Positions 19,895 to 51,393 of a stretch of DNA of 64,000 nt are shown here, one piece after another. A program made the translations under genes and the position numbers. The notes beneath the pieces are model-generated. The model was not told where the DNA came from. It worked only from the letters and a program-made list of their open reading frames with translations, and ran no database searches. The DNA is from Streptomyces sp. ALI-76-A (GTDB lineage: Bacteria; Actinomycetota; Actinomycetes; Streptomycetales; Streptomycetaceae), in the NCBI RefSeq assembly GCF_030287445.1, contig NZ_JASVWB010000003.1, positions 1 through 64,000 on the forward strand, written 5' to 3'. The stretch's first letter is position 1. Each line of letters starts with the position of its first letter.

Positions 19895-20665
19895 TCAGGC
19901 CACGTCAGTGTCCCGCTCGATGGCCTGGAGGCGGTTCTTGAGCCGGTAGCTGTTGCCGTTGATCGGGACGACCTCGCAGTGGTGCAGGAGGCGGTCGAGG
20001 ATCGCGGTGGCCAGGACCTCGTCGCCGAAGACCTGGCCCCACTCGCCGAAGGTCTTGTTCGAGGTCAGGATGATCGAGCCCTTCTCGTAACGCTTCGAGA
20101 TGACCTGGAAGACCAGGTTCGCCTCGGCCCGTTCCAGGGGTTGGTAGCCCACTTCGTCGACCACGAGGACGGCGGGGCGGAGGTAGCTGGTGAGCTTGCT
20201 CATCAACCGCCCCTGATCCTCGGCGGCCTTGAGGTGACGGACCATGTCGTCGAGGCTGGTGAAGTAGATCGAGTAGCCCGCCCGACAAGCTGCGACGGCC
20301 AGCGCGACAGCGATGTGTGTCTTGCCGACCCCGGGCGGCCCGAGCAGGGCGACGTTGGCCTTGTCCTCGACGAAGGAAAGGGTGGCCAGGTCTTTGACCT
20401 TGCGCGGGTCGAGCTCGGGCTGGAAGGAGAAGTCGTAGTCCTCGAGCGTCTTGTGGTGTGGCAGCTTCGACAGCCGCAGGCCGTTGCGGAAGCGGCGGTC
20501 GTCACGGACCGCGAGTTCCTCTGCCAGAACCAGGTCGATCAGATCGAGATAGCCCATCTTGGCCTCGTCCGCCCGCTGGATGTACTGGTTCAGGGCTTCG
20601 GCCAGGTGCGGCAAGCCGAGCTTGACGGCCGTGGCGCGGATGCGATTGCTGGTCAGCTCGCTCAA
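19895..20665 (-). CDS. istB: IS21 helper ATPase IstB
   Basis: This 256-residue protein has the IstB/DnaC-like AAA+ core: Walker A LGPPGVGKTHIAVALAVAAC, Walker B VLVVDEVGY and sensor-1-like IILTSNKTFGEW, after an N-terminal helical domain (ATAVKLGLPHLAEALNQYI). It begins with a TTG overlapping the istA stop (TTGA), the usual translational coupling of IS21 elements. IstB assembles on target DNA and directs IstA transposition. The gene looks intact. Confidence 0.93.
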   Translation of the reverse strand: MSELTSNRIRATAVKLGLPHLAEALNQYIQRADEAKMGYLDLIDLVLAEELAVRDDRRFRNGLRLSKLPHHKTLEDYDFSFQPELDPRKVKDLATLSFVEDKANVALLGPPGVGKTHIAVALAVAACRAGYSIYFTSLDDMVRHLKAAEDQGRLMSKLTSYLRPAVLVVDEVGYQPLERAEANLVFQVISKRYEKGSIILTSNKTFGEWGQVFGDEVLATAILDRLLHHCEVVPINGNSYRLKNRLQAIERDTDVA

Positions 20666-21641
20666 CGGGCTTCCTTCGTCGGTGCGTTGGTGGTGAAGGG
20701 GCGGGTGCCGGTCAGCTCGTCATAAACCGACAGCGGACGGCGGCCGACCTCGACGCTTGCGGCGGCGGCCCGGTTCAGCAGAGCTTGCAGTGGCCCGTCT
20801 GGCGCCCCCAGAGTCTGGCCGCGGCGGGGCGCAGGCAGACCGTCCCCGGTGGTGACGCGGCGGCCGGCGCCGGTGGGCAGACCGTCCCAGTGGGTCTCAT
20901 CCACGATGCGGGCACCTCGGCCGACTGCCCTGGGATGGGCGGCCAACAACGTCTGACCGTTCGCGTCGGCGACGGTGGAATGCAGTGTGATCTGGGACTT
21001 CGTGGCCCGGATCTCGACCAGCTGGCGAGGGCGGACCTTGCGAGCGGGAACCGAGTAGAGGTTCGCGTCGAACGCAACCAGGCAGTCCTTGCCGACATGC
21101 CGCAGATGCCGCTGTGTGACCACATACGGAGTCGTCGCCAGCGGCCGGAGAGCCGTGTGATCGCGCACGGCCCGGTGTCCGATGATCTCGCCGTGGGTGC
21201 CATGGACCTTCGCTCGCCGCAGTGGCACCCAGGAGGCGAAGGCGGCGTTCATCTCCTCGATGGAGGAGAAGGCCCGCCCGGCGAGCACGTGGTCCCGGAC
21301 GATGCCGACCTGGCGCTCGACCCGGCCTTTGCCCTGGGGCCGGTAGGCGGCCAGCACGTCGATGTCGAAGTCGTAGTGCCCGGCGAAGGCGACCGCTTCC
21401 GGGTGCAGCGGAACTGCCTCGCCCGGGGCGACGTGCCGGCGCACGACTGTCTTGGTGCGGTCGTAGACGATGCTCATCGGCACTCCGCCGAAGTGCGCGA
21501 ACGCCTGCCGGTGGCAGTCGAAGAACGTCGCCAGGTCCTGGCTGGTGGTGAAACAGCAGAACGGATCGCGCGAGTACGACAACGTCATGTGGAACGAGTA
21601 GACCTTCGGGATGCCGACATGGGCGAGGATCTTTCCTTCGT
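20662..21641 (-). CDS. istA: IstA transposase, 3' exon (catalytic core and C-terminus)
   Basis: The segment reads from EGKILAHVGIPKVYSFHMTL through SIVYDRTKTVV (second catalytic Asp), YRPQGKGRVERQVGIVRD (catalytic Glu) and the Mu-C-like C-terminal part ending TNAPTKEAR. It joins the 5' exon at 24176 after removal of the intron: G (24176) plus AC (21641-21640) makes the Asp codon of the VDWGD motif. The joined frame is 1,419 nt (472 residues), the expected length of IstA, with no stop. Without splicing the 3' exon has no start of its own in frame with the N-terminus. Confidence 0.88.
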
Positions 21642-21735: not shown

Positions 21736-23508
21736 TCACGAGAGTGCAACTACTGCTGGTTTCCTGCGGTTTCGGGCCCGAAGGCCGCGATGGCAGGAGG
21801 CGTGCACAAGGCATGTTCGGTTCCCGTCCGACGTGTCGTGCCGTCCGTGCAGAGTGAGATAGTCGGCGGCTATCGCCCTCTTGACGACGTTCAACCACCA
21901 TCGCTCCCATTCCTGAGGCGACTGCGGTGGCTGATCGGCGGTGAGAAGGTGCTCCCCGCAGAGCGGACAACGACCGTCCTGTTTGGCGAGCAGGCGCAAG
22001 TTGTAGTTGTCCAGCGGGGGTTTGACCTTTCGTCGCCGCTTGACCCAGTAGTCCGTCAGCTCGGGATCGTCGGGTGACGCCCCGCCTGCGATCAACTGGT
22101 GCCGAACGATGTTCGTCCAGGAGAACTTGAGCAGAATCGGGATCTCGCCGCGGTCGTTGAGCACGTTGGCGCGATCTCCGAACACCCACCGGTCGTTCCT
22201 GAACTTGTTGAACCTGCCGAAGTAGCGTCGAACGATCCACTTCTTCGACTTGTTGGGATGCATGCGTCTGGCCCACCGGTAGGTGAGCCACCACACGTAG
22301 TGATCCAGCGCCGTAAAGATCCTGCTGGACACCACCCCCCGGTAGTAGGCAGCCCAGCCCCGCACGATCGGGTTGAGCTTGGCGATGACAGCCGTCGCGT
22401 TCAAGCCGCGCAGACAGCGCACCTCGTCCGCGAGCCTCTTCCGGATGCGCCTGACCGCCTCCGCACTCGGTTTGATCAGCAGCTTGCCGCGTCGATAGCG
22501 GCGGACGTTGAACCCGAGAAAGTTGAAGCCCTCTTCGAGGTGGACGATGCGCGTCTTGTCCTCGTTGAAGACCAGCCCCCGAGGCGCCAGCCACTCCGCA
22601 AGCTGTGCCTTGACCTGCTCGGCCTGCTGCCTGGAATGACAGCAGGCGACCATGTCGTCGGCGTATCTCACCAAGATCGGAGAGCCCGCCACCACATCCC
22701 CGGCGTGAGTGCCGGTCATGAGATAGCGGACCCCTGCGGCCTCCTCCAGCCCGTGGAGGGCCACGTTCATCAACAGCGGGCTGATCACGCCGCCTTGAGG
22801 AGAGCCCTCCTCGGTCGGCGTGAACTGCCCTTTGTCGACCACTCCGGCCTTCAGCCATCGCTCGATCAGATCTCTGGCCGGGAACGAACCGAGCGAGTCG
22901 AGTAGCCGAGCGTGGCCGATCTTGTCGAACGCAGCGGACAGATCAGCATCCAGGATCCACAACCGGCGGGCGCGTGGCCCGCTGAGCGTGGAGAACAGGG
23001 AGCCGATCGCGTCGGCGCAGCTTCGCCCGGGGCGGAACCCGTAGGAACGGGGCTCGAACCGGGCTTCCCACTCGGGCTCCAGTGCGCTGCGGACCCGTGC
23101 CTGATGACAGCGGTCCAAGATCACGGGAATGCCGAGCGGTCTCTGCTTTCCATTGGCCTTCGGAATGTACACACGGCGCACGGGCATGGGGTCCCAGGAC
23201 GAACGCGTGCGGTGCACCCGCACCGCGACCGCCGCCCTGGCCTCGGGGGACAAAGCTGTCTCCCCGTCGATCCCGGCCGTCCGGCGCCCAGCGTTGCGCT
23301 GAGTGACCTGCCGCACGCTGACCAGCGTGTTCGACCAGGACCTCAGCATCAGTTTCTGCAAGGATCGGACCTGGGCCCAGTCCTCTTCTCGTGTCGCCTT
23401 GAAGATCCTTCGCCGCAGCCTCACTACGTTCTCCTCGTGAGTCCGCCAGACAATGGCGTCCCAGTCGAGAACGTCCTCGGGTCCGTTCACCACGATGGTG
23501 TCCAACAT
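21736..23508 (-). CDS. ltrA: Group II intron reverse transcriptase-maturase with HNH endonuclease
   Basis: The 590-residue protein has RT blocks ([70 protein letters not shown]) with the catalytic Y282-ADD285. The maturase X domain ([38 protein letters not shown]) follows, then a C-terminal HNH domain with CPLCGEHLL and a later HASCHRG. All hallmark residues are present, so splicing and retrohoming competence is plausible. Length is normal for a full LtrA-type protein. It is expressed from inside the intron and therefore depends on istA or an internal promoter. Confidence 0.95.
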
Positions 23509-27738: not shown

Positions 27739-29366
27739 GGCCCTGTCTCGCATTCGGTGGTGACGGAGCGTGCTGTTATCCGAGGAGGATGCGGTGCCGG
27801 AGCAGGGTGAAGCCTGCTCGTCCGTGCATCTGGCGCGCAATCCGTTTGGTCTTGGTGTTGACGCCCTCGGTGGGGCCGTTGCTGTACGGAAGCGTGAGCC
27901 CGGCGATCACGGCGTCGATGTCCCGGTCCAGGCCCCGGGTGAAGGCGTGTAGGTGGGGCAGGTCGGCTGTTCGGACTTGGGCGATCCAGTGCGTGAGCGC
28001 ATCGGCGTTGTCGGTGTGTGGCGTAAGGAGCGGGGCGAAGTCTCTGATATCTGCGGCCAGTTGGGTCATCTCGGGGCAGGCGGCGGTGAGCTTGGCCAGG
28101 AGCTCGTGCTGCTCGGGCTTGAGGTTGTCGGGCCTGGTCAGCAGCATCCGGGCGAGTCGACGTGGCGAGATATGGCTGCGGTCGGCGTCCGCGCGGCCTT
28201 GGTTGATGTACTTGTGCAGAAGGTTCAGGCAGCCCGTGAAGCCGAGGGTCTTGATCTCTTCGAAGAGGTGCTGGACGGGGACGCCGGGGTCTTCACTTCG
28301 GCGTTTGCGCAGGTGCTCGCGGTAGGGATCGACCAGGCTGGCACGGTACTTGGGGACGCGGAGCATGCGCTCGGGCCGGTCGGCTCGGGCGTAGCGTTTG
28401 ACGGTGTTCAGGGCCAGTTGCAGGCGGCGGGCGCATTCGAGCAGGCCCACGCCCTTCTCGAGCAGGCCATGAACCTGGTGCCAGCGTTCGAGGGTGGTCT
28501 GAGCGCGGGGCCCGTCGTAGATCGGCGCGTCCAGTACGGTGGCCCAGCAGGCACTGTGTGCCTTCACCTCGTTCAGGGCGGCTTCGCACAGGTTCTTCCA
28601 TAAATGCCAGCGATCACCGACTTGCACCGCGTCGGGCAGAGCACGGCGGATGGCCTCGGCGTAGGTGGCTGAGCCGTCGCGGCACACGACCTCGATGCCC
28701 GGATGCCCGCGCAGCCACGCTTCCAGGGTGTCGGCCGTGCGGTCGGGCAGTACGTCGATCCGCTCATGGGTCTCGGCGTCGATGATCACGGTGGCATAGC
28801 GGTGCCGCCGGCGCAGGGCGAAATCGTCGACGCCGATCACACGGGGCACCCGCCCGGTGGGCAACGGGATGCGCAGCAGGGCGCGCAGGGCCGTGTGACG
28901 GGACAGGCCCACCGCGAGTATCGCCAGCAAACGTGATCCCGCCCGGCCCGCTAACTCTTTGACCACGGCCCTGACCTGCCTGGTCAGACGAGCGATGCGT
29001 CGCTGGTATCGCTCCAGCAGCCCGGGCACCTGTTCGCGGAAGGTGTGGCGGCAGCCTCGCGTGGGACACACCAGACGCCGCACCCGCACACGGACCACCA
29101 CCTGTCGCCCGTCGACCGGAACGTCGGCCACCGTCCGCCAGTGATAGCCGTGCACCCGTCCCGACGAGGCCCCGCACACCGGGCAGACCGCGGTGTCCAG
29201 CGGCGTCCGGGCCCGCACCACGATCCGCCCACCCTCGTCGACCACATCCTCCATGATCAGTGGGGACAGACCCGAAAACACCGTCTGCACAAGCTCGTTG
29301 ACATCTATCACAGGAAGGTCAACGACCCTGACAACTCTCCGTCACCACCGAATGTGAGACAGGGCC
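27739..29366 (-). mobile_element. ISL3-family insertion sequence, apparently complete
   Basis: The ends (27739-27766 and 29339-29366) are 28-bp inverted repeats with one mismatch, starting GGCCCTGTCTC and ending GTGGTGACGG. One intact transposase lies between. ISL3 elements make an 8-bp duplication, but the flanks here (ACGTTTGC and GGTGAGCG) differ, so one side has probably been rearranged since insertion. Confidence 0.88.
27776..29311 (-). CDS. ISL3-family transposase
   Basis: This 511-residue protein has the N-terminal zinc fingers (CPVCGASSGRVHGYHWRTVA; CPTRGCRHTF) and the DDE core with RVIGVDDFALRRRHRYAT, PGIEVVCRDGSATYAEAIRR, QVGDRWHLWKNLCEAAL and the C-terminal Glu region LPYSNGPTEGVNTKTKRIAR. 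Length and motifs are those of a functional ISL3 transposase. Confidence 0.95.
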   Translation of the reverse strand: MIDVNELVQTVFSGLSPLIMEDVVDEGGRIVVRARTPLDTAVCPVCGASSGRVHGYHWRTVADVPVDGRQVVVRVRVRRLVCPTRGCRHTFREQVPGLLERYQRRIARLTRQVRAVVKELAGRAGSRLLAILAVGLSRHTALRALLRIPLPTGRVPRVIGVDDFALRRRHRYATVIIDAETHERIDVLPDRTADTLEAWLRGHPGIEVVCRDGSATYAEAIRRALPDAVQVGDRWHLWKNLCEAALNEVKAHSACWATVLDAPIYDGPRAQTTLERWHQVHGLLEKGVGLLECARRLQLALNTVKRYARADRPERMLRVPKYRASLVDPYREHLRKRRSEDPGVPVQHLFEEIKTLGFTGCLNLLHKYINQGRADADRSHISPRRLARMLLTRPDNLKPEQHELLAKLTAACPEMTQLAADIRDFAPLLTPHTDNADALTHWIAQVRTADLPHLHAFTRGLDRDIDAVIAGLTLPYSNGPTEGVNTKTKRIARQMHGRAGFTLLRHRILLG

Positions 29367-39609: not shown

Positions 39610-40860
39610 GTGCTCAGCGTAGTCACCGAGGATGGCTCCACTCAGTCCGGTTCCCTGATCGACGAGATCGTCCGTGAGGGCGCCAGGCGGATGCTCGCCG
39701 CGGCACTGGAGGCAGAAGTCAACCAGTACATAGCCGAGTTGGCTGCCGAGACCGATGAGGCAGGCCGACGGCTGGTGGTCCGCAACGGCCATCACCGGCC
39801 CAGGACCGTCGTCACTGCCGCTGGCCCGGTCGAGGTGCGGGCACCGCGGGTGAACGACCGCCGCGTGGACGAGGCCACCGGCGAGCGCAAGCGGTTCTCC
39901 TCCAAGATCCTGCCGCCGTGGTGCCGCAAGTCGCCGAAGATCTCCGAGGTGCTGCCGCTGCTCTACCTGCACGGACTGTCGTCCGGGGACTTCGTGCCCG
40001 CGCTGGAGCAGTTCCTCGGCTCGACGGCCGGTCTGTCGTCGGCGACGGTGACCCGGCTGACGCGGCAGTGGGGCGATGACCATGCCGCCTTCCAGGCCAG
40101 GGACCTGTCAGACCGCGATTTCGTCTACGTGTGGGCCGACGGCGTGCACCCCAAGGTGAGGCTCGGGCAGACGCACTCGTGCGTACTGGTCCTGCTCGGC
40201 GTCCGCCTGGACGGCACCAAGGAACTGATCGCGCTGGCGGAGGGCCTGCGCGAGTCGACCGAGTCGTGGGCGGACCTGCTGCGTGACTGCCGCAGGCGTG
40301 GCATGCGCGACCCCGAGCTGGTGGTCGGCGATGGCGCGATGGGCCTGTGGAAGGCGCTGGCCGAGGTCTTTCCGGCCGCCCGTCATCAGCGGTGCTGGGT
40401 TCACAAAGCCCGCAATGTCACGAACTGCCTGCCGAAGTCCGCACAGCCGGGCGCGACGAAGGCGATGCAGGAGATCTACAACGCCGAGGACCGCGCCCAC
40501 GCCGAGAAGGCGATCGATGTGTTCGCCCGCACCTACGGCACCAAGTGGCCCAAGGCCGTCGCGAAGATCACCGACGACCGGGAGGAACTGCTGGCGTTCT
40601 ACGACTTCCCTGCCGAGCACTGGATCCACCTGCGGACCACGAACCCCATTGAGTCGACATTCTCCACGGTCAAGCTCCGCACCAAGGTCACCCGCGGGGC
40701 CGGCAGCCCCGCCGCCGCACTCGCGATGGTGTTCAAGCTCGTCGAGTCCGCCCAGGCCCGCTGGCGCGCGATCACCGGCGCCCACCTGGTGCCCCTTGTC
40801 CGTGCGGGAGCCAAATTCGAAAGCGGTGTGCTGGTCGAACGTGGCACGGTGGCGGCATGA
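39610..40860 (+). CDS. IS256 (mutator-like) transposase
   Basis: GTG 39610 with GGAAGG upstream; 416 residues. Catalytic landmarks are VYVWADGVHPKVRLG (Asp), LVVGDGAMGLWKALAEVFPA (Asp), RHQRCWVHKARNV and TNPIESTFSTVKLRTK (Glu). The family N-terminal motif RMLAAALEAEVNQYI and GHHRPRTVVTAAGPVEVRAP are present. It appears intact. The stop overlaps the kinase start (ATGA at 40857). Confidence 0.95.
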   Translation: MLSVVTEDGSTQSGSLIDEIVREGARRMLAAALEAEVNQYIAELAAETDEAGRRLVVRNGHHRPRTVVTAAGPVEVRAPRVNDRRVDEATGERKRFSSKILPPWCRKSPKISEVLPLLYLHGLSSGDFVPALEQFLGSTAGLSSATVTRLTRQWGDDHAAFQARDLSDRDFVYVWADGVHPKVRLGQTHSCVLVLLGVRLDGTKELIALAEGLRESTESWADLLRDCRRRGMRDPELVVGDGAMGLWKALAEVFPAARHQRCWVHKARNVTNCLPKSAQPGATKAMQEIYNAEDRAHAEKAIDVFARTYGTKWPKAVAKITDDREELLAFYDFPAEHWIHLRTTNPIESTFSTVKLRTKVTRGAGSPAAALAMVFKLVESAQARWRAITGAHLVPLVRAGAKFESGVLVERGTVAA

Positions 40861-43048: not shown

Positions 43049-43969
43049 CTAGCAGGTCAGGGCGGGTTGACATGGTTTCAGGTTCACCGGTTCGGCCGCT
43101 GCCTGGTCGGCGTAGTGCTTCTCTTCGAACTCGATGGGGCTGAGGTAGCCGAGGCGCTTTTGGATGCGGCGGGGGTTATAGAAGCCGTCGATGTACTCGA
43201 GGAGCACGAGATTCGCCTCGGCCCTGGTCGCGAAGACGCGGCCGCGGATGCACTCGGTCTTGATCAGCATCCACAGGTTCTCCGCCAGGGCATTGTCGAA
43301 GGAGTCGCCGACCGAGCCCATGGACGCTTGAACGCCTGCTCTGACCAGGCGGGTTGTGAGCTTGATGGATGTGTATTGGGCTCCGTGATCGGCATGGTGG
43401 ACGAGTTCGCCGGGGGTGACCTCGCGGCTGGCCAGCGCTTACTCGAGGGAGGTGAGGACCAGGTCGGCGTCCGCGCGGGCGGAGGTCTCCCAGGCCACGA
43501 CTCTGCGGGAGAAGGCATCGCGGATCGCCGACAGCCACAGTGGCCCCTGCAGAGTGGGGATCATGGTCAGGTCGGTGACCCACAGCCGGTTCGGCGCGGA
43601 TGCCGTGAAGTCGCGTTGCACCAGGTCAGGGGCAGGGTCGGCGTCCGGGTCGCGGCGGGTGAAGCTCGGGCTCCTACGGGGGCTGATCCCGGCCAGGCCG
43701 GCCTGGCGCATGAGCCGCTCGACCCGCTTGCGGCCGACATGGACACCCTCGCGCTTCAGGACGGCATGAATCCTGGGCGATCCGTAGATCCCGCCGGAGT
43801 CCTGGTGGATCTGCCGGATCTGCCCGGTCAGCTCGGTGTCCTGGCGGACCCGTTCACAGGGGTCCTTCTCGGCCTGACGCCAGCGGTAGTAGGTGGAGGA
43901 GGGGATGTGCAGTTCCCGCAGGACGGGCTCGACCCCCAGGTGCGGGTGCTCGTCGAGGAGCGCTCTCAC
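43049..43969 (-). pseudogene. IS3 OrfB with in-frame nonsense codon
   Basis: The frame reads MRALLDEHPHLGVEPVLREL, GGIYGSPRIHAVLKREGVHV and APNRLWVTDLTMIPTLQGPL (first Asp), but hits TAA at 43439-43441 after DLVLTSLE. The same frame then continues without shift through VTPGELVHHADHGAQYTSIK (second Asp) and SFDNALAENLWMLIKTECI (Glu) to a stop at 43049. A single base change has killed it, unless the stop is read through. Confidence 0.85.
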
Positions 43970-44274
43970 CTGGGCCGGGTCGGGTCGAGCTGCGCGGCGA
44001 AAAAAGCCGAGGCCGTCCGCAGGACCTCGTTCGCCCGGCGCAGGTCCCGCACCTCGCGCCGCAGCTGGGCGAGCTCGTTCTTCTCTTCGGTGGTGAGCAG
44101 GTCGTCCCGCTCGCCGGCGTCGGCCTCGGCCTGCCGGATCCAGTTCCGCAGGGCTTCGTGATGCACGCCGAGTTCCTCGGCCATCCGGCGGATCACGGGC
44201 TTCGGCTCGGCAGTCCGGTACATCCGCACCGCACGCTCACGCAACTCCAACGGGTACTTCCTCGGGGCAGGCAT
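43966..44274 (-). CDS. IS3 OrfA (helix-turn-helix)
   Basis: ATG 44274 (MPAPRKYPLELRERAVRMYR), then HTH EPKPVIRRMAEELGVHHEAL and a leucine-rich tail (ELAQLRREVRDLRRANEVLR), about 102 residues. It overlaps orfB by 4 nt at 43966-43969, as in other IS3 elements. Confidence 0.88.
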   Translation of the reverse strand: MPAPRKYPLELRERAVRMYRTAEPKPVIRRMAEELGVHHEALRNWIRQAEADAGERDDLLTTEEKNELAQLRREVRDLRRANEVLRTASAFFAAQLDPTRPR

Positions 44275-44341
44275 CGTCTGGGCTTCTCTCATACGCCATC
44301 TGACCTGCTGTCACCTTTCCCCGCATCTCGGGGGAACCTCA

Positions 44342-45013: not shown

Positions 45014-46195
45014 GTGCGTGTGTTCATCGCTGGCGTGGACGGCTATCTCGGCTGGACTCTGGCTCAGCACCTTGCCCGTCAGGGTCACGACGTCGGTGGC
45101 GCTGATGCTTTGTTGCGTCGGATCTGGGTCGATGAGATGGAATCTCTGAGCGCCATCCCCATCGCGTCCATGGACGAGCGCCTGGCCTCTTTTGGCGAGC
45201 ACTTCGGCAAACCGATGCGCTTCTTCGCGCTAGACCTGCGCGACCATACGGCTTTGTGTGCTGCCCTTGCGGAGTTTAAGCCTGATGCGGTGGTACATCT
45301 CGCTGAGTGTCCTTCCGCCCCATACTCCATGATTGATTTCCACCACGCTGATTTCGTCCAGCACAACAACGTCTCCGGAACCTTGAGTCTCCTGTTTGCG
45401 ATGCGTGACCACTGCCCGGAGGCTCATCTGGTCAAGCTGGGCTCTATGGGTGAGTACGGGACACCCAACCTGGACATCCCAGAGGGTTTTTTTGAAGTCG
45501 AGTACCGAGGCCGGCGTGACCAGCTCCCGTTTCCCCGGCAAGCTGGCTCTTGGTACCACTGGAGCAAGGTATTCGACTCTCACAATGTCGCCTTTGCCTG
45601 CCAGCTTTGGGGGCTGCGAGCGACCGACGTAATGCAGGGCGTGGTGTACGGCACCTGGCTTGACACCGACGCACGACTCAATACCCGCCTGGATTTTGAC
45701 GAGGCATTCGGGACCGCACTCAACCGATTCTGCTGCCAAGCGGTTATTGGCAAGCCGCTCATGCCCTACGGTCAGGGTACCCAGCGGCGTGGATTCTTGT
45801 CGCTCGCCGACTCCATGCAGTGCCTGAGTTTGGCGATCGAACACCCGCCAGCGGTTAGCGAGTACCGGGTCTTCAATCAGTTGCGTGAGGTGTTGTCCGT
45901 AAATGACTTGGCGCAGTTGGTGCGTGCGGCCTGCGAATCGTTCGAACTCGCTGTCGAAATCAAGCCGCTGGACAACCCTCGAGTGGAAGCGGAGGCTCAC
46001 CACTACCGCCCGGACAGTCAGCACCTGCGACAGCTTGGATTCCGGCAGTCGCTGCCCATCGACGAGGAAATCCGGAACATGATCGGCGACCTGCTGCCGC
46101 ACCGAGACCGTATTGCAGCCCATGCCGACCAGCTCGCCCCGACCGTGCGGTGGCGAGACTCCTGCAAGCCACAGCCACAGTGTTCGCACACATGA
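45014..46195 (+). CDS. SQD1-like NAD-dependent sugar-nucleotide enzyme (UDP-sulfoquinovose synthase family)
   Basis: GTG 45014 follows TGGAGG 6 nt upstream and gives 393 residues, the length of SQD1/SqdB. Match to the family is detailed: G7-VDGYLG13 (NAD site), LLRRIWVDEMESLSAIPIAS, SAPYSMID, QHNNVSGTLSLLFAMRD, HLVKLGSMGEYGTPNLDIPE, SWYHWSKVFDSHN with catalytic Y181 and K185, LRATDVMQGVVYGT, TALNRFCCQAVIGKPLMPYG and NPRVEAEAHHY. SQD1 converts UDP-glucose plus sulfite to UDP-sulfoquinovose. The family's T in KLGTMGEYGTPN is S144 here, and the Arg before SAPYSMID is P100, so substrate or sulfite use may differ. No sulfolipid transferase is near; instead a short peptide gene and a peptide-type glycosyltransferase follow within 20 bp gaps. 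Codon choice is less GC-biased than the surroundings. Confidence 0.85.
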   Translation: MRVFIAGVDGYLGWTLAQHLARQGHDVGGADALLRRIWVDEMESLSAIPIASMDERLASFGEHFGKPMRFFALDLRDHTALCAALAEFKPDAVVHLAECPSAPYSMIDFHHADFVQHNNVSGTLSLLFAMRDHCPEAHLVKLGSMGEYGTPNLDIPEGFFEVEYRGRRDQLPFPRQAGSWYHWSKVFDSHNVAFACQLWGLRATDVMQGVVYGTWLDTDARLNTRLDFDEAFGTALNRFCCQAVIGKPLMPYGQGTQRRGFLSLADSMQCLSLAIEHPPAVSEYRVFNQLREVLSVNDLAQLVRAACESFELAVEIKPLDNPRVEAEAHHYRPDSQHLRQLGFRQSLPIDEEIRNMIGDLLPHRDRIAAHADQLAPTVRWRDSCKPQPQCSHT

Positions 46196-46209
46196 CGAAA
46201 GGGACTCAC

Positions 46210-46437
46210 ATGAGCGAGAAGAAGCCCGAGAACGAGAACGTGCGTGAAGCCTTGCGCGCAGCATGCAGGACGAACGAAGTAGTCCGTCTGTTGCGCGATG
46301 ACCCACAGGCATTCGCCAAGCGGTTCAACCTGTCTGACGCCGAGCGGGAGCGCCTTGAACGCTCAGACCTGCTGTTGGTCCTGCCCGGCGAAGTTCTGGC
46401 AGGGACAACAACCCCGATCACCATCACGGACTGCTGA
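46210..46437 (+). CDS. Candidate RiPP precursor peptide (75 aa)
   Basis: ATG 46210 has AAAGGGA 6 nt upstream and lies 14 bp after the SQD1-like gene. Residues 1-10 are charged (MSEKKPENEN). Residues 11-58 form a helical leader-like domain (VREALRAACRTNEVVRLLRD, PQAFAKRFNLSDAERERLER, SDLLLVLP) resembling the LigA/NHLP-type leaders of some RiPPs. Then G60-EVLAG65 looks like a cleavage region, and the tail is TTTPITITDC (66-75) with five Thr and a terminal Cys. The context of a sugar-nucleotide enzyme before it and a GalNAc-transferase-like GT2 6 bp after it points to a peptide glycosylated on Thr or Cys. Sequence and operon are seen; precursor status and modification are inference. Confidence 0.7.
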   Translation: MSEKKPENENVREALRAACRTNEVVRLLRDDPQAFAKRFNLSDAERERLERSDLLLVLPGEVLAGTTTPITITDC

Positions 46438-46443
46438 CCTGCA

Positions 46444-47376
46444 GTGCTCAGCACGCCGACAATCAGCGTGGTTTTCCCCGCGCGTAACGAAGGCGCGCGG
46501 GTCGCGCAGACTGTCGCGTCAGCCCTCGAATCCTGCGAAGCGCCCCGCGACATCGAGGTAGTCATCGTTGACGACTCCTCGAAGCCTGCGGGGCGGCCCA
46601 ACGTCAGCGCGTCAGCGGGTCGGTTCCCGGTGCGGGTCATCCGCTCAGACGTACACCTGGGCGTCGGGGCCGCACGCAACCTGGCTGTCCAGCATGCCCG
46701 TGGGGACGTGGTCTTCATCACCGACGCTCACGTTCAGTTCTCGCCTGCATGGGACCGGGAGGTAGGCCGCCTCATCAAGCCCCAGCGGATCCTGGCAACC
46801 GCCATCTGCAACCAGGACTCCTCAAAGCGCTTCTTCGGTTGCCGCCTGGTCGTGCCGCATATGGGAACCCATTGGAACACCAGCTTGCCGGACTCAGAAC
46901 CACACGTCCAAATCGCTTCGTCCGCCGGAACTGTACTGGAACGTGCCCTATTTGAGCGCATCGGCGGGTACGACGAGGGGATGATGCATTACGGCGGATT
47001 CGAACCGGAGTTCAGCGTGCGGGCCTGGTGCAGTGGTGCCGAGGTCGTCCTGGCACCCGGCATCGAGATTGCCCACCGGTTCAAACCTGCGCACGAACGC
47101 GACGCGTTCGTCGCCTCAGTGCGCACCGCCTTGTTGCACAACTGCCTGCGGTTCGGTGTCGCTTACCTGCCGGAGCTGATGATCTTGGAGATGGTACGCC
47201 TGCACGCTTTGGAGTTCCCGGACCACATCCAGGCCGCTCTGCACCTGCTTGAGCAAAGGGATGCCTGGCGCCGCCGCGCTGAACTTGCCAAAACCCGCAC
47301 GCACGACTTCGAGTGGTTTGTCGACCGTTTTGCGCTACATGATCAATCCGGCAGGCCAATTCCCGTCCAGGCATGA
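46444..47376 (+). CDS. Family 2 glycosyltransferase resembling polypeptide GalNAc-transferases
   Basis: GTG 46444 is 6 bp after the peptide gene; 310 residues. The GT-A fold is clear: ISVVFPARNEGARVAQTVAS, VVIVDDSSKP, VHLGVGAARNLAVQHARGDV, then the metal-binding D94-A-H96 (DxH as in polypeptide GalNAc-transferases). Next come VPHMGTHWNTSLPD, ERIGGYDEGMMHYGG-FEPE (like the WGGEN motif region) and VLAPGIEIAHRFKP. There is no membrane segment or lectin domain, so it acts in the cytoplasm. It probably transfers the sugar made by the SQD1-like enzyme onto the peptide. It is the last intact gene before an IS630 element (47506); any further cassette genes may have been lost there. Confidence 0.85.
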   Translation: MLSTPTISVVFPARNEGARVAQTVASALESCEAPRDIEVVIVDDSSKPAGRPNVSASAGRFPVRVIRSDVHLGVGAARNLAVQHARGDVVFITDAHVQFSPAWDREVGRLIKPQRILATAICNQDSSKRFFGCRLVVPHMGTHWNTSLPDSEPHVQIASSAGTVLERALFERIGGYDEGMMHYGGFEPEFSVRAWCSGAEVVLAPGIEIAHRFKPAHERDAFVASVRTALLHNCLRFGVAYLPELMILEMVRLHALEFPDHIQAALHLLEQRDAWRRRAELAKTRTHDFEWFVDRFALHDQSGRPIPVQA

Positions 47377-47505: not shown

Positions 47506-48591
47506 CTGAGGTTTTCGGGCCGGAGGGTGGGGCCTGACCGCTGAGCGTCGGGCCTTTCGGGAGAAGATCCGGCTCCGGGCCGGTGAGAGGTTCACGGCGG
47601 GCGAGAAGACTGCGGTGATCGCCAGGGATTTGCGGGTGAGTGTGCGGTCGGTGGAACGCTGGCGCCGTGCCTGGCGCGAGGGTGGCATGGAGGCCCTGCG
47701 TTCTGCGGGCCCGGCCAACTCCCCGACCGTCACCGATGCCCAGTTCGCCGTGCTCGAGGAGGAACTCGGCAAGGGTCCGTCAGCGCACGGCTTCGGCGAT
47801 GAGCGGTGGACGTTGGCCCGGGTCCAGACGGTGATCCGCCGGCGTCTGAGGCTGAGCCTGTCGGTGGCGACGGTGTGGCGGCTGTTGAAACGGCACGGCT
47901 GGTCATGGCAGGCGCCCGCCCGCAGAGCACTCGAACGCGACGAGCACGCCGTCGAACTGTGGAAGAAGGAGGTGTGGCCGAGGGTAAAAGCCTCGCGGCG
48001 GCCCACGGGGCCTGGATCGTCTTCGAGGACGAGTCCGGATTCTCCATGACGCCGCCTCGCGCCCGCACCTGGGGCCGGCGCGGACACACCCCCGTCATCC
48101 GAGTGAGAGGCCGCTCCCGCCGCAGGACCTCGGTCGCCGCCCTGTGCTGCTACAAACCGGGCGTGGAAACCCGTCTCATCCACCGGCCCCGCAACCACCT
48201 CCTCCTCAAAGGCGCACGCAAGAGCTTCTCCTGGCAGGACTACCGCGACCTGCTCGTCCGTGCACACATCCAGCTCGGCGGCCCGATCGTGGTGGTCTGG
48301 GACAATCTCAACACCCACCTGGCGGCCGGGCTGAAACGGTACGAGGCCGAGCACGACTGGCTCACCACCGTCCGCCTCCCGCCGTATGCACCCGACCTGA
48401 ACCCCGTCGAGACCCTCTGGTCACTGGTACGCCGGGCCATGGCCAACACCGCCTTCGACACACCCGACGGCCTCGACCGCACACTCCGCCGGGAGTTACG
48501 AAGGATCCAACTCCGGCCACACCTGATCGACGGTTGCCTCACCGCCACCGGCCTGACCCTCGCACCACCGACCCCACCCTGAAAACCTCAG
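47506..48591 (+). mobile_element. IS630-family element, copy A (1,086 bp, 57 bp shorter than copy B)
   Basis: Ends CTGAGGTTTTC and GAAAACCTCAG are flanked by TA on both sides (47504-47505, 48592-48593), the IS630 hallmark. It is nearly identical to copy B at 50251-51393, but a 57-bp segment after GGTTTTCGGG that contains the start codon in copy B is missing. The 0.13 kb between the GT2 gene and this element holds only a possible coding scrap (SHEGYEWLCVLYGRLWLALG). Confidence 0.88.
47542..48582 (+). pseudogene. IS630 transposase (copy A) lacking its start codon
   Basis: The HTH part (LTAERRAFREKIRLRAGERF, VIARDLRVSVRSVERWRRAW, WTLARVQTVIRRRLRLSLSV) is open but has no start; the first in-frame ATG is at 47687. 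At GTAAAAG (47994-48000) a -1 slip is needed to reach the DDE part: SLAAAHGAWIVFEDESGFSM (Asp), IVVVWDNLNTHLAAGLKRYE (Asp) and APDLNPVETLWSLVRRAM (Glu). Copy B has the same slip site, so that shift may be programmed; the missing start makes this copy defective. Confidence 0.8.
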
Positions 48592-48706: not shown

Positions 48707-49378
48707 TTCCGGTGTCCTTACACCGGCCTTGTCACCAGCCTCGACCCGTAACCCCTTGGCTCATTTGACCGTGTCCCGCTGGCGCAGCCCCCGCTTGTGG
48801 ATCACTCTGGACGAGCGGGGCTCACCGGCTCACCTGTCGCCAACGCCGACGAGCCCCTGGTGCCGCCGCCGCCGGCAGCCCAGCGGCGGCACCCATAACT
48901 CACCGCTGACAAATTCTTAGCCGCCAGCCGCCAGCCGCCTCCGGGCTGGTGCCCCGCCGTCTTCGTGACAATTCCTCACCCGGGAAAGCACGGCCAGTCT
49001 CAAGGGAACCTGTATCGGCATATCTGCGGCCGTGTATCGGAGCATGAGGGATGCAGTGCCATGCTGTCCGACTTATGTGGGCCTCTTGTCAAACGTCTCT
49101 AGCAGAATCTTCGTCTGTGCAGGTCTCGTGCTGCGGAAGGTCCGGAGTCCGGAACCGCCCGCGCCTCGCAACGGGTGGCTTGTTCATGAGTTGCTCGTGG
49201 ACAAAGCCGAAGGGCTGACGAACGGGGGCTCTTGTACCGTCTTGAACTGGACAAAATGCCAACGTGAGAGTCTGTTTCGGTCGCCTGCGATCACGACGGC
49301 ATGGCATGTGACCATGCAACCCTTGCCCATGGCAACCTGCGGTTGAGCACAGTGACTGGAGTCGGAGGTACACCGCTC
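48707..49378. other. Gene-free region ahead of the XRE gene
   Basis: No supported gene. It contains the tail of the dispersed repeat and the promoter region of the XRE/DUF5753 gene. Confidence 0.4.
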
Positions 49379-50254
49379 GTGGCGGCCAACATCAACCCCA
49401 CCGTCAGGCGGCGCCGTCTGGGAGCCGAGCTTCGCCGGCTCCGCAAGGCCAGTGGGCTGAAGGCCACAGAAGTGGCCGAGCGGCTCATGGTCTCCCAGCC
49501 CAAGATCAGTCATCTGGAGAACGGTAAACGCGCCATCAGCCCCTGCGACGTGCACGACCTGTGTTCGATCTACGGAGTGACGGACCAGCCGGTCATCGAC
49601 TCGCTGATGCAGATGGCCAAGGAATCCGCACAGCAGGGCTGGTGGAACGCCTACGGCGACATCCCCCAGAGTGTCTATATCGCCCTGGAGACGGACGCCG
49701 CCTCCGTCCATGCCTACGAGTCCACGGTGATCCCCGGGCTGCTACAGACTCCCGCCTACGCCCAGGCGGTCATCAAGGAAACGATCCCCCTGCTCACTGC
49801 CGAACAGGCCGACACACGCCTCAAGGTGCGGCTGCGCCGTCAGCACCGGATCCACGACCCGGTCTGTCGGCTGCGCCTGTGGGTCGTCCTGGACGAATCG
49901 GCACTGCGCCGCATCGTCGCCAGCCCACAGGTCATGCGTGAACAGCTGGAGCACCTGAACGCACTCAGCGCAGAGCCGCACATCACGGTGCAGGTCCTCC
50001 CTTACACCGTCGGTGCCCACCCGGGCCTGTCAGGACAGTTCTGCATCCTGCAATTCGCCGACAGCCCCGAGGCGGGGGTGGTGTACATGGAACGGTTCAC
50101 AAACGATCTCTACCTGGAGAAACCCTCCGACGCGCAGCATTACAGCGCGCTGTACGACCACCTCCAGGCCCAGGCTCTCACCCCCGACAGCAGCCGCGAC
50201 TTCATCACCGAGGTCACCAAGACGTACATCGACGCGGCAAGGCACCCCTACTGA
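49379..50254 (+). CDS. XRE-family regulator with DUF5753 domain, stop codon altered by IS630
   Basis: GTG 49379 (GGAGG about 11 nt upstream; GTG 49352 possible) gives 291 residues. The HTH (RRRRLGAELRRLRKASGLKA, EVAERLMVSQPKISHLENGK) is followed by DUF5753 (VHAYESTVIPGLLQTPAYAQ, RLKVRLRRQHRIHDP, LSAEPHITVQVLPYTVGAHP, FTNDLYLEKPSDAQHYSALY). These Streptomyces regulators usually pair with a DUF397 protein gene, which is not seen here. IS630 copy B inserted at the TA of the original TAA stop: CACCCCTAA became CACCCCTAC-TGA, adding one Tyr. Activity should be unaffected, but the gene is separated from anything downstream. Confidence 0.9.
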   Translation: MAANINPTVRRRRLGAELRRLRKASGLKATEVAERLMVSQPKISHLENGKRAISPCDVHDLCSIYGVTDQPVIDSLMQMAKESAQQGWWNAYGDIPQSVYIALETDAASVHAYESTVIPGLLQTPAYAQAVIKETIPLLTAEQADTRLKVRLRRQHRIHDPVCRLRLWVVLDESALRRIVASPQVMREQLEHLNALSAEPHITVQVLPYTVGAHPGLSGQFCILQFADSPEAGVVYMERFTNDLYLEKPSDAQHYSALYDHLQAQALTPDSSRDFITEVTKTYIDAARHPY

Positions 50255-51393
50255 GGTTTTCGGGTTGTCGTCGGGTGGTGACGGTTCATGATCCCTGCGG
50301 TATGCCGGTGGTATGCGTTATCCGGAGGGTGGGGCCTGACCGCTGAGCGTCGGGCCTTTCGGGAGAAGATCCGGCTCCGGGCCGGTGAGAGGTTCACGGC
50401 GGGCGAGAAGACTGCGGTGATCGCCAGGGATTTGCGGGTGAGTGTGCGGTCGGTGGAACGCTGGCGCCGTGCCTGGCGCGAGGGTGGCATGGAGGCCCTG
50501 CGTTCTGCGGGCCCGGCCAACTCCCCGACCGTCACCGATGCCCAGTTCGCCGTGCTCGAGGAGGAACTCGGCAAGGGTCCGTCAGCGCACGGCTTCGGCG
50601 ATGAGCGGTGGACGTTGGCCCGGGTCCAGACGGTGATCCGCCGGCGTCTGAGGCTGAGCCTGTCGGTGGCGACGGTGTGGCGGCTGTTGAAACGGCACGG
50701 CTGGTCATGGCAGGCGCCCGCCCGCAGAGCACTCGAACGCGACGAGCACGCCGTCGAACTGTGGAAGAAGGAGGTGTGGCCGAGGGTAAAAGCCTCGCGG
50801 CGGCCCACGGGGCCTGGATCGTCTTCGAGGACGAGTCCGGATTCTCCACGACGCCGCCTCGCGCCCGCACCTGGGGCCGGCGCGGACACACCCCCGTCAT
50901 CCGAGTGAGAGGCCGCTCCCGCCGCAGGACCTCGGTCGCCGCCCTGTGCTGCTACAAACCGGGCGTGGAAACCCGTCTCATCCACCGGCCCCGCAACCAC
51001 CTCCTCCTCAAAGGCGCACGCAAGAGCTTCTCCTGGCAGGACTACCGCGACCTGCTCGTCCGTGCACACATCCAGCTCGGCGGCCCGATCGTGGTGGTCT
51101 GGGACAATCTCAACACCCACCTGGCGGCCGGGCTGAAACGGTACGAGGCCGAGCACGACTGGCTCACCACCGTCCGCCTCCCGCCGTATGCACCCGACCT
51201 GAACCCCGTCGAGACCCTCTGGTCACTGGTACGCCGGGCCATGGCCAACACCGCCTTCGACACACCCGACGGCCTCGACCGCACACTCCGCCGGGAGTTA
51301 CGAAGGATCCAACTCCGGCCACACCTGATCGACGGTTGCCTCACCGCCACCGGCCTGACCCTCGCACCACCGACCCCACCCTGAAAACCTCAG
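50251..51393 (+). mobile_element. IS630-family element, copy B (1,143 bp)
   Basis: Same ends as copy A, flanked by TA at 50249-50250 and 51394-51395. It contains the 57-bp segment missing in copy A. Both copies lie in the same orientation 1.66 kb apart. Each has its own TA duplication and separate flanks, so they are independent insertions or one is a copy of the other. Confidence 0.9.
50288..51384 (+). CDS. IS630 transposase (copy B), two frames joined by a probable -1 slip
   Basis: ATG 50288 opens the HTH frame (through GGWGLTAERRAFREKIRLRA) to about 50908. The catalytic frame (VFEDESGFSTTPPRARTWGR; VVWDNLNTHLAAGLKRYEAE; LNPVETLWSLVRRAMANTAF) runs to 51384. They overlap around GTAAAAG (50786-50792), where a -1 shift gives a continuous ~360-residue DDE transposase. 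An apparent older start ATGCGTTATCCGGAGG nearby is out of frame by one base. Differences from copy A are few, e.g. FSTTPP against FSMTPP. Confidence 0.82.

What the first reader, a model, noticed from the sequence alone, without database searches (positions are those of the whole stretch)
45014..47376. Candidate glycosylated RiPP pathway: SQD1-like enzyme, 75-aa peptide and GalNAc-transferase-like GT2 in one operon
Three genes on one strand with gaps of 14 and 6 bp encode a sugar-nucleotide enzyme of the UDP-sulfoquinovose synthase family, a short peptide with a leader-like body and a TTTPITITDC tail, and a cytoplasmic GT2 with the DxH motif of polypeptide GalNAc-transferases. SQD1 is known for sulfolipid headgroups; a sulfosugar placed on a ribosomal peptide would be a new modification to my knowledge. 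The block has less GC-biased codons than its surroundings and lies between a decayed gene and an IS630, so it looks imported. No transporter or protease is present in the three genes.
Basis: partly seen in the sequence, partly recalled or inferred. Interest (0 to 1): 0.92.

Follow-up and report, generated by a model that had tools for sequence, protein, structure and literature searches.

The report
Three-gene glycosylated-peptide cassette in Streptomyces
A rare three-gene unit in soil bacteria appears to make a small peptide and attach a sugar to its threonine-rich tail with an enzyme resembling the one that starts mucin sugar chains in animals; which sugar it is, and what the product does, are unproven.

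The parts
45014..46195 (+). SQD1-family NAD-dependent sugar-nucleotide enzyme, 393 aa, with Cys-Pro in place of Gln-Arg in the AEQRSAP motif
   Evidence: PDB SQD1 E 1.1e-110; NF041015 524.1 bits, cut-off 575; motif HLAECPSAPYSM and SWYHWSK; only protein match in its genome
46210..46437 (+). Precursor-like peptide, 75 aa
   Evidence: 33 related clusters; alignment A5; model with helices 9-52 and disordered tail
46405..46434 (+). Conserved tail TTTPITITDC, the proposed glycosylation region
   Evidence: Thr66 33 of 34, Thr71 34 of 34, Thr73 32 of 34 rows of A5; 3.49 bits per position against 2.93 in the leader
46444..47376 (+). GT27 (pp-GalNAc-transferase)-like GT-A glycosyltransferase, 310 aa

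Best explanation
The three genes form a minimal RiPP-type cassette. The SQD1-family enzyme makes a modified UDP-hexose, probably from UDP-glucose (inferred; identity open). The short peptide is the substrate: its helical N-terminal part docks it to the transferase (inferred) and presents a conserved Thr/Ile tail. The GT27-like transferase places the sugar on tail threonines in the cytoplasm, by analogy with polypeptide GalNAc-transferases (inferred from family and fold). Leader removal and export, if they happen, rely on genes elsewhere. Shown: conserved gene trio, co-occurrence, constraint on the tail, enzyme families. Not shown: the sugar, the acceptor residues, the product, the function.
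For: Same trio in order in 5 of 5 loci read. GT and SQD1 in the same 3 of 392 Streptomyces genomes; peptide in 5 of 5 cassette genomes against 2 weak partial matches in 75 others. GT profile and fold closest to pp-GalNAc-transferases. Tail more conserved than leader and linker; in P0153 the leader has diverged but the tail is intact. GT and peptide divergence track over 17 pairs (Mantel r 0.896, p 0.0001), with tail type following GT clade. Peptide modelled as helices plus disordered tail. Os1348/NHLP RiPP model hits 3 of 11 peptides scanned, best E 1e-5.
Confidence: 0.65

Rival explanations
1. One reading: and a narrower form of the best explanation: the SQD1-like enzyme makes UDP-sulfoquinovose and the GT puts sulfoquinovose itself on the peptide.
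For: Full-length SQD1 homologue with the Tyr-x-x-x-Lys pair and the (S/T)MGEYG segment kept in 5 of 5 cassette enzymes. The curated cut-off may be strict: only 1 of 14 control genomes passes it, though two of them, Sulfolobus acidocaldarius and Synechococcus elongatus, should carry true enzymes (recalled for the latter; PMC4388408 for the former).
Against: Gln-Arg replaced by Cys-Pro in 5 of 5; the Arg-to-Ala mutant of Agl3 is inactive. Below the curated cut-off.
Confidence: 0.27
2. The peptide is not the substrate but a small helper or targeting subunit of the GT or SQD1 enzyme; the sugar goes onto another acceptor such as a lipid, a cell-wall glycan or a larger protein.
For: No protease or exporter in the cassette; SQD1 enzymes otherwise serve lipids or glycans (a Sinorhizobium plasmid homologue sits beside a glycosyltransferase); six longer versions carry the motif inside the chain.
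Against: The constraint is highest in the flexible Thr-rich tail, not in the helical part; the GT is closest to peptide-acceptor enzymes.
Confidence: 0.2
3. A glycocin-like bacteriocin: glycosylation makes an antimicrobial peptide.
For: Short leader-plus-tail peptide next to a GT-A glycosyltransferase.
Against: No transporter-protease or oxidoreductase seen among the three genes or shared by the flanks read (by eye); the window tail has one Cys and the clade-2 tails of L009, L012, L015 and L016 none; the tail is conserved rather than diversified.
Confidence: 0.06

Closest known systems
Polypeptide GalNAc-transferases (GT27)
   Different: About 20% identity; no lectin domain (310 aa in all); no signal or membrane segment was looked for by tool; donor sugar probably differs
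UDP-sulfoquinovose synthase SQD1/SqdB/Agl3
   Same: Full-length homology and Tyr-x-x-x-Lys
   Different: Cys-Pro for Gln-Arg at the Agl3 Arg101 motif in 5 of 5; below the curated cut-off; linked to a peptide gene
Os1348/NHLP-clan and borosin (SonA) RiPP precursors
   Same: Small helical N-terminal part, then a short flexible tail; weak matches; passages read of PMC7726476 and PMC8429565
   Different: All matches below cut-offs or not significant; no N-methyltransferase or other recognised RiPP enzyme in the cassette; different tail
Mycofactocin glycosyltransferase MftF
   Same: A GT that glycosylates a RiPP (PMC7491314, passages); best NCBIfam hit of the GT (E 5.5e-22)
   Different: 78.3 bits against a cut-off of 280; 310 aa against 470 in M. 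smegmatis; no mft genes seen beside it
Glycocins (sublancin, glycocin F)
   Same: GT-A glycosyltransferase with a ribosomal peptide
   Different: No transporter-protease or oxidoreductase seen; no multi-Cys core; conserved tail

Membership tests
pp-GalNAc-transferase (GT27) catalytic domain | Sequence and fold closest to GT27 over the whole catalytic domain | tested here: met
pp-GalNAc-transferase (GT27) catalytic domain | Transfers GalNAc, with retention, to peptide Ser/Thr | not testable with these tools
   Needs an enzyme assay
UDP-sulfoquinovose synthase | SDR catalytic Tyr-x-x-x-Lys | tested here: met
   SWYHWSK in 5 of 5 cassette enzymes
UDP-sulfoquinovose synthase | Arg of the AEQRSAP motif, essential in Agl3 | tested here: not met
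   AECPSAP in 5 of 5; Agl3 R101A inactive (PMC4388408 section 6)
UDP-sulfoquinovose synthase | Curated equivalog score NF041015 (575 bits) | tested here: not met
   524.1 bits; but only 1 of 14 control genomes passes, so the cut-off may be strict
RiPP precursor (Os1348/NHLP clan) | Curated domain score NF038399 (40 bits) | tested here: not met
   Best 25.5 bits, P0127; no hit for the window peptide
RiPP precursor (general) | Short gene beside a modifying enzyme, with folded leader and flexible constrained tail | tested here: met
   modification itself not shown
Glycocin | Transporter-protease and oxidoreductase genes, multi-Cys core | tested here: not met
   Not among ORFs beside the cassette by eye; 0-1 Cys in the tails of the five loci. 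The feature list is recalled
Mycofactocin pathway | MftF equivalog score (280 bits) | tested here: not met
   78.3 bits
Borosin | Alpha-N-methyltransferase acting on a precursor with a helical binding domain | tested here: inconclusive

The most novel reading that the evidence does not exclude
A new RiPP class in which a bacterial GT27-like transferase places a row of sulfonated, or otherwise C6-modified, hexoses on a Thr/Ile tail, giving an amphipathic, mucin-like (possibly anionic) glycopeptide, with a diverged Cys-Pro SQD1 enzyme that has evolved its own C6 chemistry to supply the sugar.
Probability: 0.3. Interest if true: 0.92.

Novelty: new variant of a known kind. Interest (0 to 1): 0.74.

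Why it matters
It would be a three-gene route to a glycopeptide that uses the mucin-type peptide glycosyltransferase fold in bacteria, with a dedicated sugar-nucleotide enzyme. It would offer a compact system for Thr O-glycosylation, make it testable whether SQD1-family enzymes supply sugars to peptides (sulfoquinovose or another), and the fixed tail points to a conserved physiological role rather than an arms-race toxin.

Tried and rejected

Rows dropped before counts: L010 (Sphingomonas, residues 3-101 only, 39%) is not counted as a cassette relative. P0154 (E 0.02, LigA) is not counted as a peptide relative. Of 14 equal contig lengths I dropped P0123/P0058 (1755 bases) as a likely coincidence; for that comparison I gave the script 40 of the 120 listed GT proteins and all 34 peptides.

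Full report
What is there. The window is G000:C3:1-64000 of a 9.69 Mb genome. I take it to be a Streptomyces, because its relatives are: Streptomyces sp. ISL-11 and Streptomyces sp. NPDC012403, whose GT is 97% identical. The three ORFs lie as described, with gaps of 14 and 6 bases. Their GC3 (0.711-0.756) is below that of the same genes in relatives (0.897-0.958, four genes); of two neighbouring ORFs one is similar (0.739) and one higher (0.821). Transposase-like ORFs lie on both sides. This fits recent acquisition but does not prove it.

It recurs as a unit. The genome-contig scan gave one near full-length match, Streptomyces sp. ISL-11 (L009), and one partial Sphingomonas match that I set aside. 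L009 has SQD1 (74%), a 74-aa peptide (39%) and GT (65%) in the same order. A family sample gave 2 of 297 genomes including the own (G152) and a genus sample 3 of 392 including the own (G312, G620). Read with flanks, each has the trio, so 5 of 5. Neighbours differ: recO-, uppS- and leuA-like genes surround the cassette in L012 and L016, MarR-like genes precede it in L009 and L015 (names are my reading of the ORFs; no family search was run on them). No fourth gene common to all five was seen by eye. SQD1 searched in the genus sample also gave 3 of 392, the same three; the listed rows of the two searches are the same genomes. Leaving out the own genome, two of two coincide; by hand that is about 1 in 76,000 by chance. 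The peptide profile A5 matched 5 of 5 cassette genomes; among 75 other Streptomyces it gave G328 (E 1.2e-5, 40 positions) and G351 (E 0.008), and G620 has a second weak match (0.005). The G328 match lies inside a 466-aa ORF next to a DUF692-like ORF (family name recalled). Among 51 relatives the profile hit only G000 and G312, both cassette carriers.

The peptide. Two searches gave 33 related clusters (7, extended; P0154 set aside). Thirteen share a contig length with a listed GT relative, two (P0129, P0130) lie on contigs of the same length as those of L016 and L015, and P0121 is the window's own; the other 17 are unassigned, which does not show that a GT is missing. Alignment A5 (34 rows) shows a charged helical part and a tail. 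Over 17 GT-peptide pairs, 5 of the 6 with GTs 69-100% identical to the window's end in PITITDC and the sixth has PITITAQ; of the 11 with GTs 62-66% identical, 8 have a TITLHTITIT-like tail and 3 TITIPITLTHT. Six longer versions (114-122 aa) carry the motif inside the chain, followed by a further segment. The tail carries 3.49 bits per position, the leader 2.93, the linker 1.91 (tails of the TITIPITLTHT type are imperfectly placed in that alignment). In P0153 the leader has diverged (E 6.5e-4) but TITLHTITIT is intact. The model (mean pLDDT 69) has helices between residues 9 and 52, and the tail has low confidence. Links to RiPP leaders are weak: the Os1348/NHLP model hits 3 of 11 peptides, best 1e-5 and below its cut-off, and not the window's own; borosin-related matches are not significant; LigA is no better than unrelated hits.

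The sugar enzyme. It is a full-length SQD1 homologue. A protein search finds no other in its genome; the family model adds one 46-position fragment at 27.5 bits. Two facts weaken the sulfosugar reading. It scores 524.1 bits against a cut-off of 575, although only 1 of 14 control genomes passes that cut-off. And the EQRSAPYS segment of SQD1 reads ECPSAPYS in 5 of 5 cassette enzymes. In Agl3 the Arg of AEQRSAP, called Arg101 by the authors and placed here from their primer, gives an inactive enzyme as Ala (PMC4388408, section 6 read). Among 6 of 22 plasmid homologues read, four bacterial ones keep Gln-Arg and two haloarchaeal ones have Gln-Pro. None of the six loci has a convincing match to the peptide profile (best E 0.015 in L033) or the tail motif. 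So the cassette SQD1 looks like a distinct subtype tied to the peptide. The (S/T)MGEYG segment and Tyr-x-x-x-Lys are kept in 5 of 5, so UDP-sulfoquinovose is not excluded.

Literature. The listings for sulfoquinovose with RiPP (10 papers), UDP-sulfoquinovose synthase, glycosyltransferase and precursor peptide, any two (160, 20 listed), glycocin or sulfonated sugar (191, 15 listed), sulfoquinovose with O-glycosylation (3), sulfoquinovosyl with Streptomyces clusters (6), GT27 with RiPP (2) and glycosylated RiPP with Streptomyces and threonine (3) showed no title or abstract start that describes this cassette. LigA/Nif11 leaders (272, 20 listed), NHLP/Os1348 (9,759, 10 listed) and borosin (16, 8 listed) were searched for background. 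Passages were read of PMC7726476, PMC7491314 and PMC8429565; of PMC4388408 passages and section 6. Subscription journals are mostly not held, so a prior report cannot be excluded.

Verdict. A real, conserved three-gene unit that I could not match to a described system, best explained as a glycosylated-RiPP cassette with a GT27-like transferase. Peptide glycosylation is well supported by genomics but unproven; the sulfosugar is an open and testable question.

Noticed in passing
window 47615-48582 and 50288-51384: Two near-identical IS630-like transposase copies, each as two overlapping ORFs in different frames, flank an HTH regulator-like gene (49301-50254) just after the cassette.
   Followed up: no
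window 19895-44292: Dense mobile-element region by my reading of the ORFs: IstA/IstB-like pair (19895-21588), reverse-transcriptase-like ORF (21736-23508), further transposase-like ORFs (27776-29311, 39610-40860, 43049-44292).
   Followed up: no
L030 (G328), ORF 820-2220 minus: A 466-aa ORF beside a DUF692-like ORF contains a stretch resembling the peptide's leader (E 1.2e-5), suggesting that the leader domain is also used in another RiPP-like system.
   Followed up: partly
P0127, P0146, P0148, P0150, P0152, P0153: Longer peptides (114-122 aa) carry the Thr/Ile motif in the middle, followed by a conserved 'SLEELSxERLxEIT' segment, so the motif need not be C-terminal.
   Followed up: partly
L034:5001-6173 and L037:4001-5203: Haloarchaeal plasmid SQD1 homologues have Gln-Pro at the Agl3 Arg101 motif and TTGVYG for TMGEYG, so they too may not be standard UDP-sulfoquinovose synthases.
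   Followed up: no
GT relatives P0036, P0038, P0039, P0051, P0053, P0060, P0063: The GT27-like family extends at 44-51% identity to Alphaproteobacteria, Paenibacillus and relatives, and a haloarchaeon; their neighbours are unknown.
   Followed up: partly
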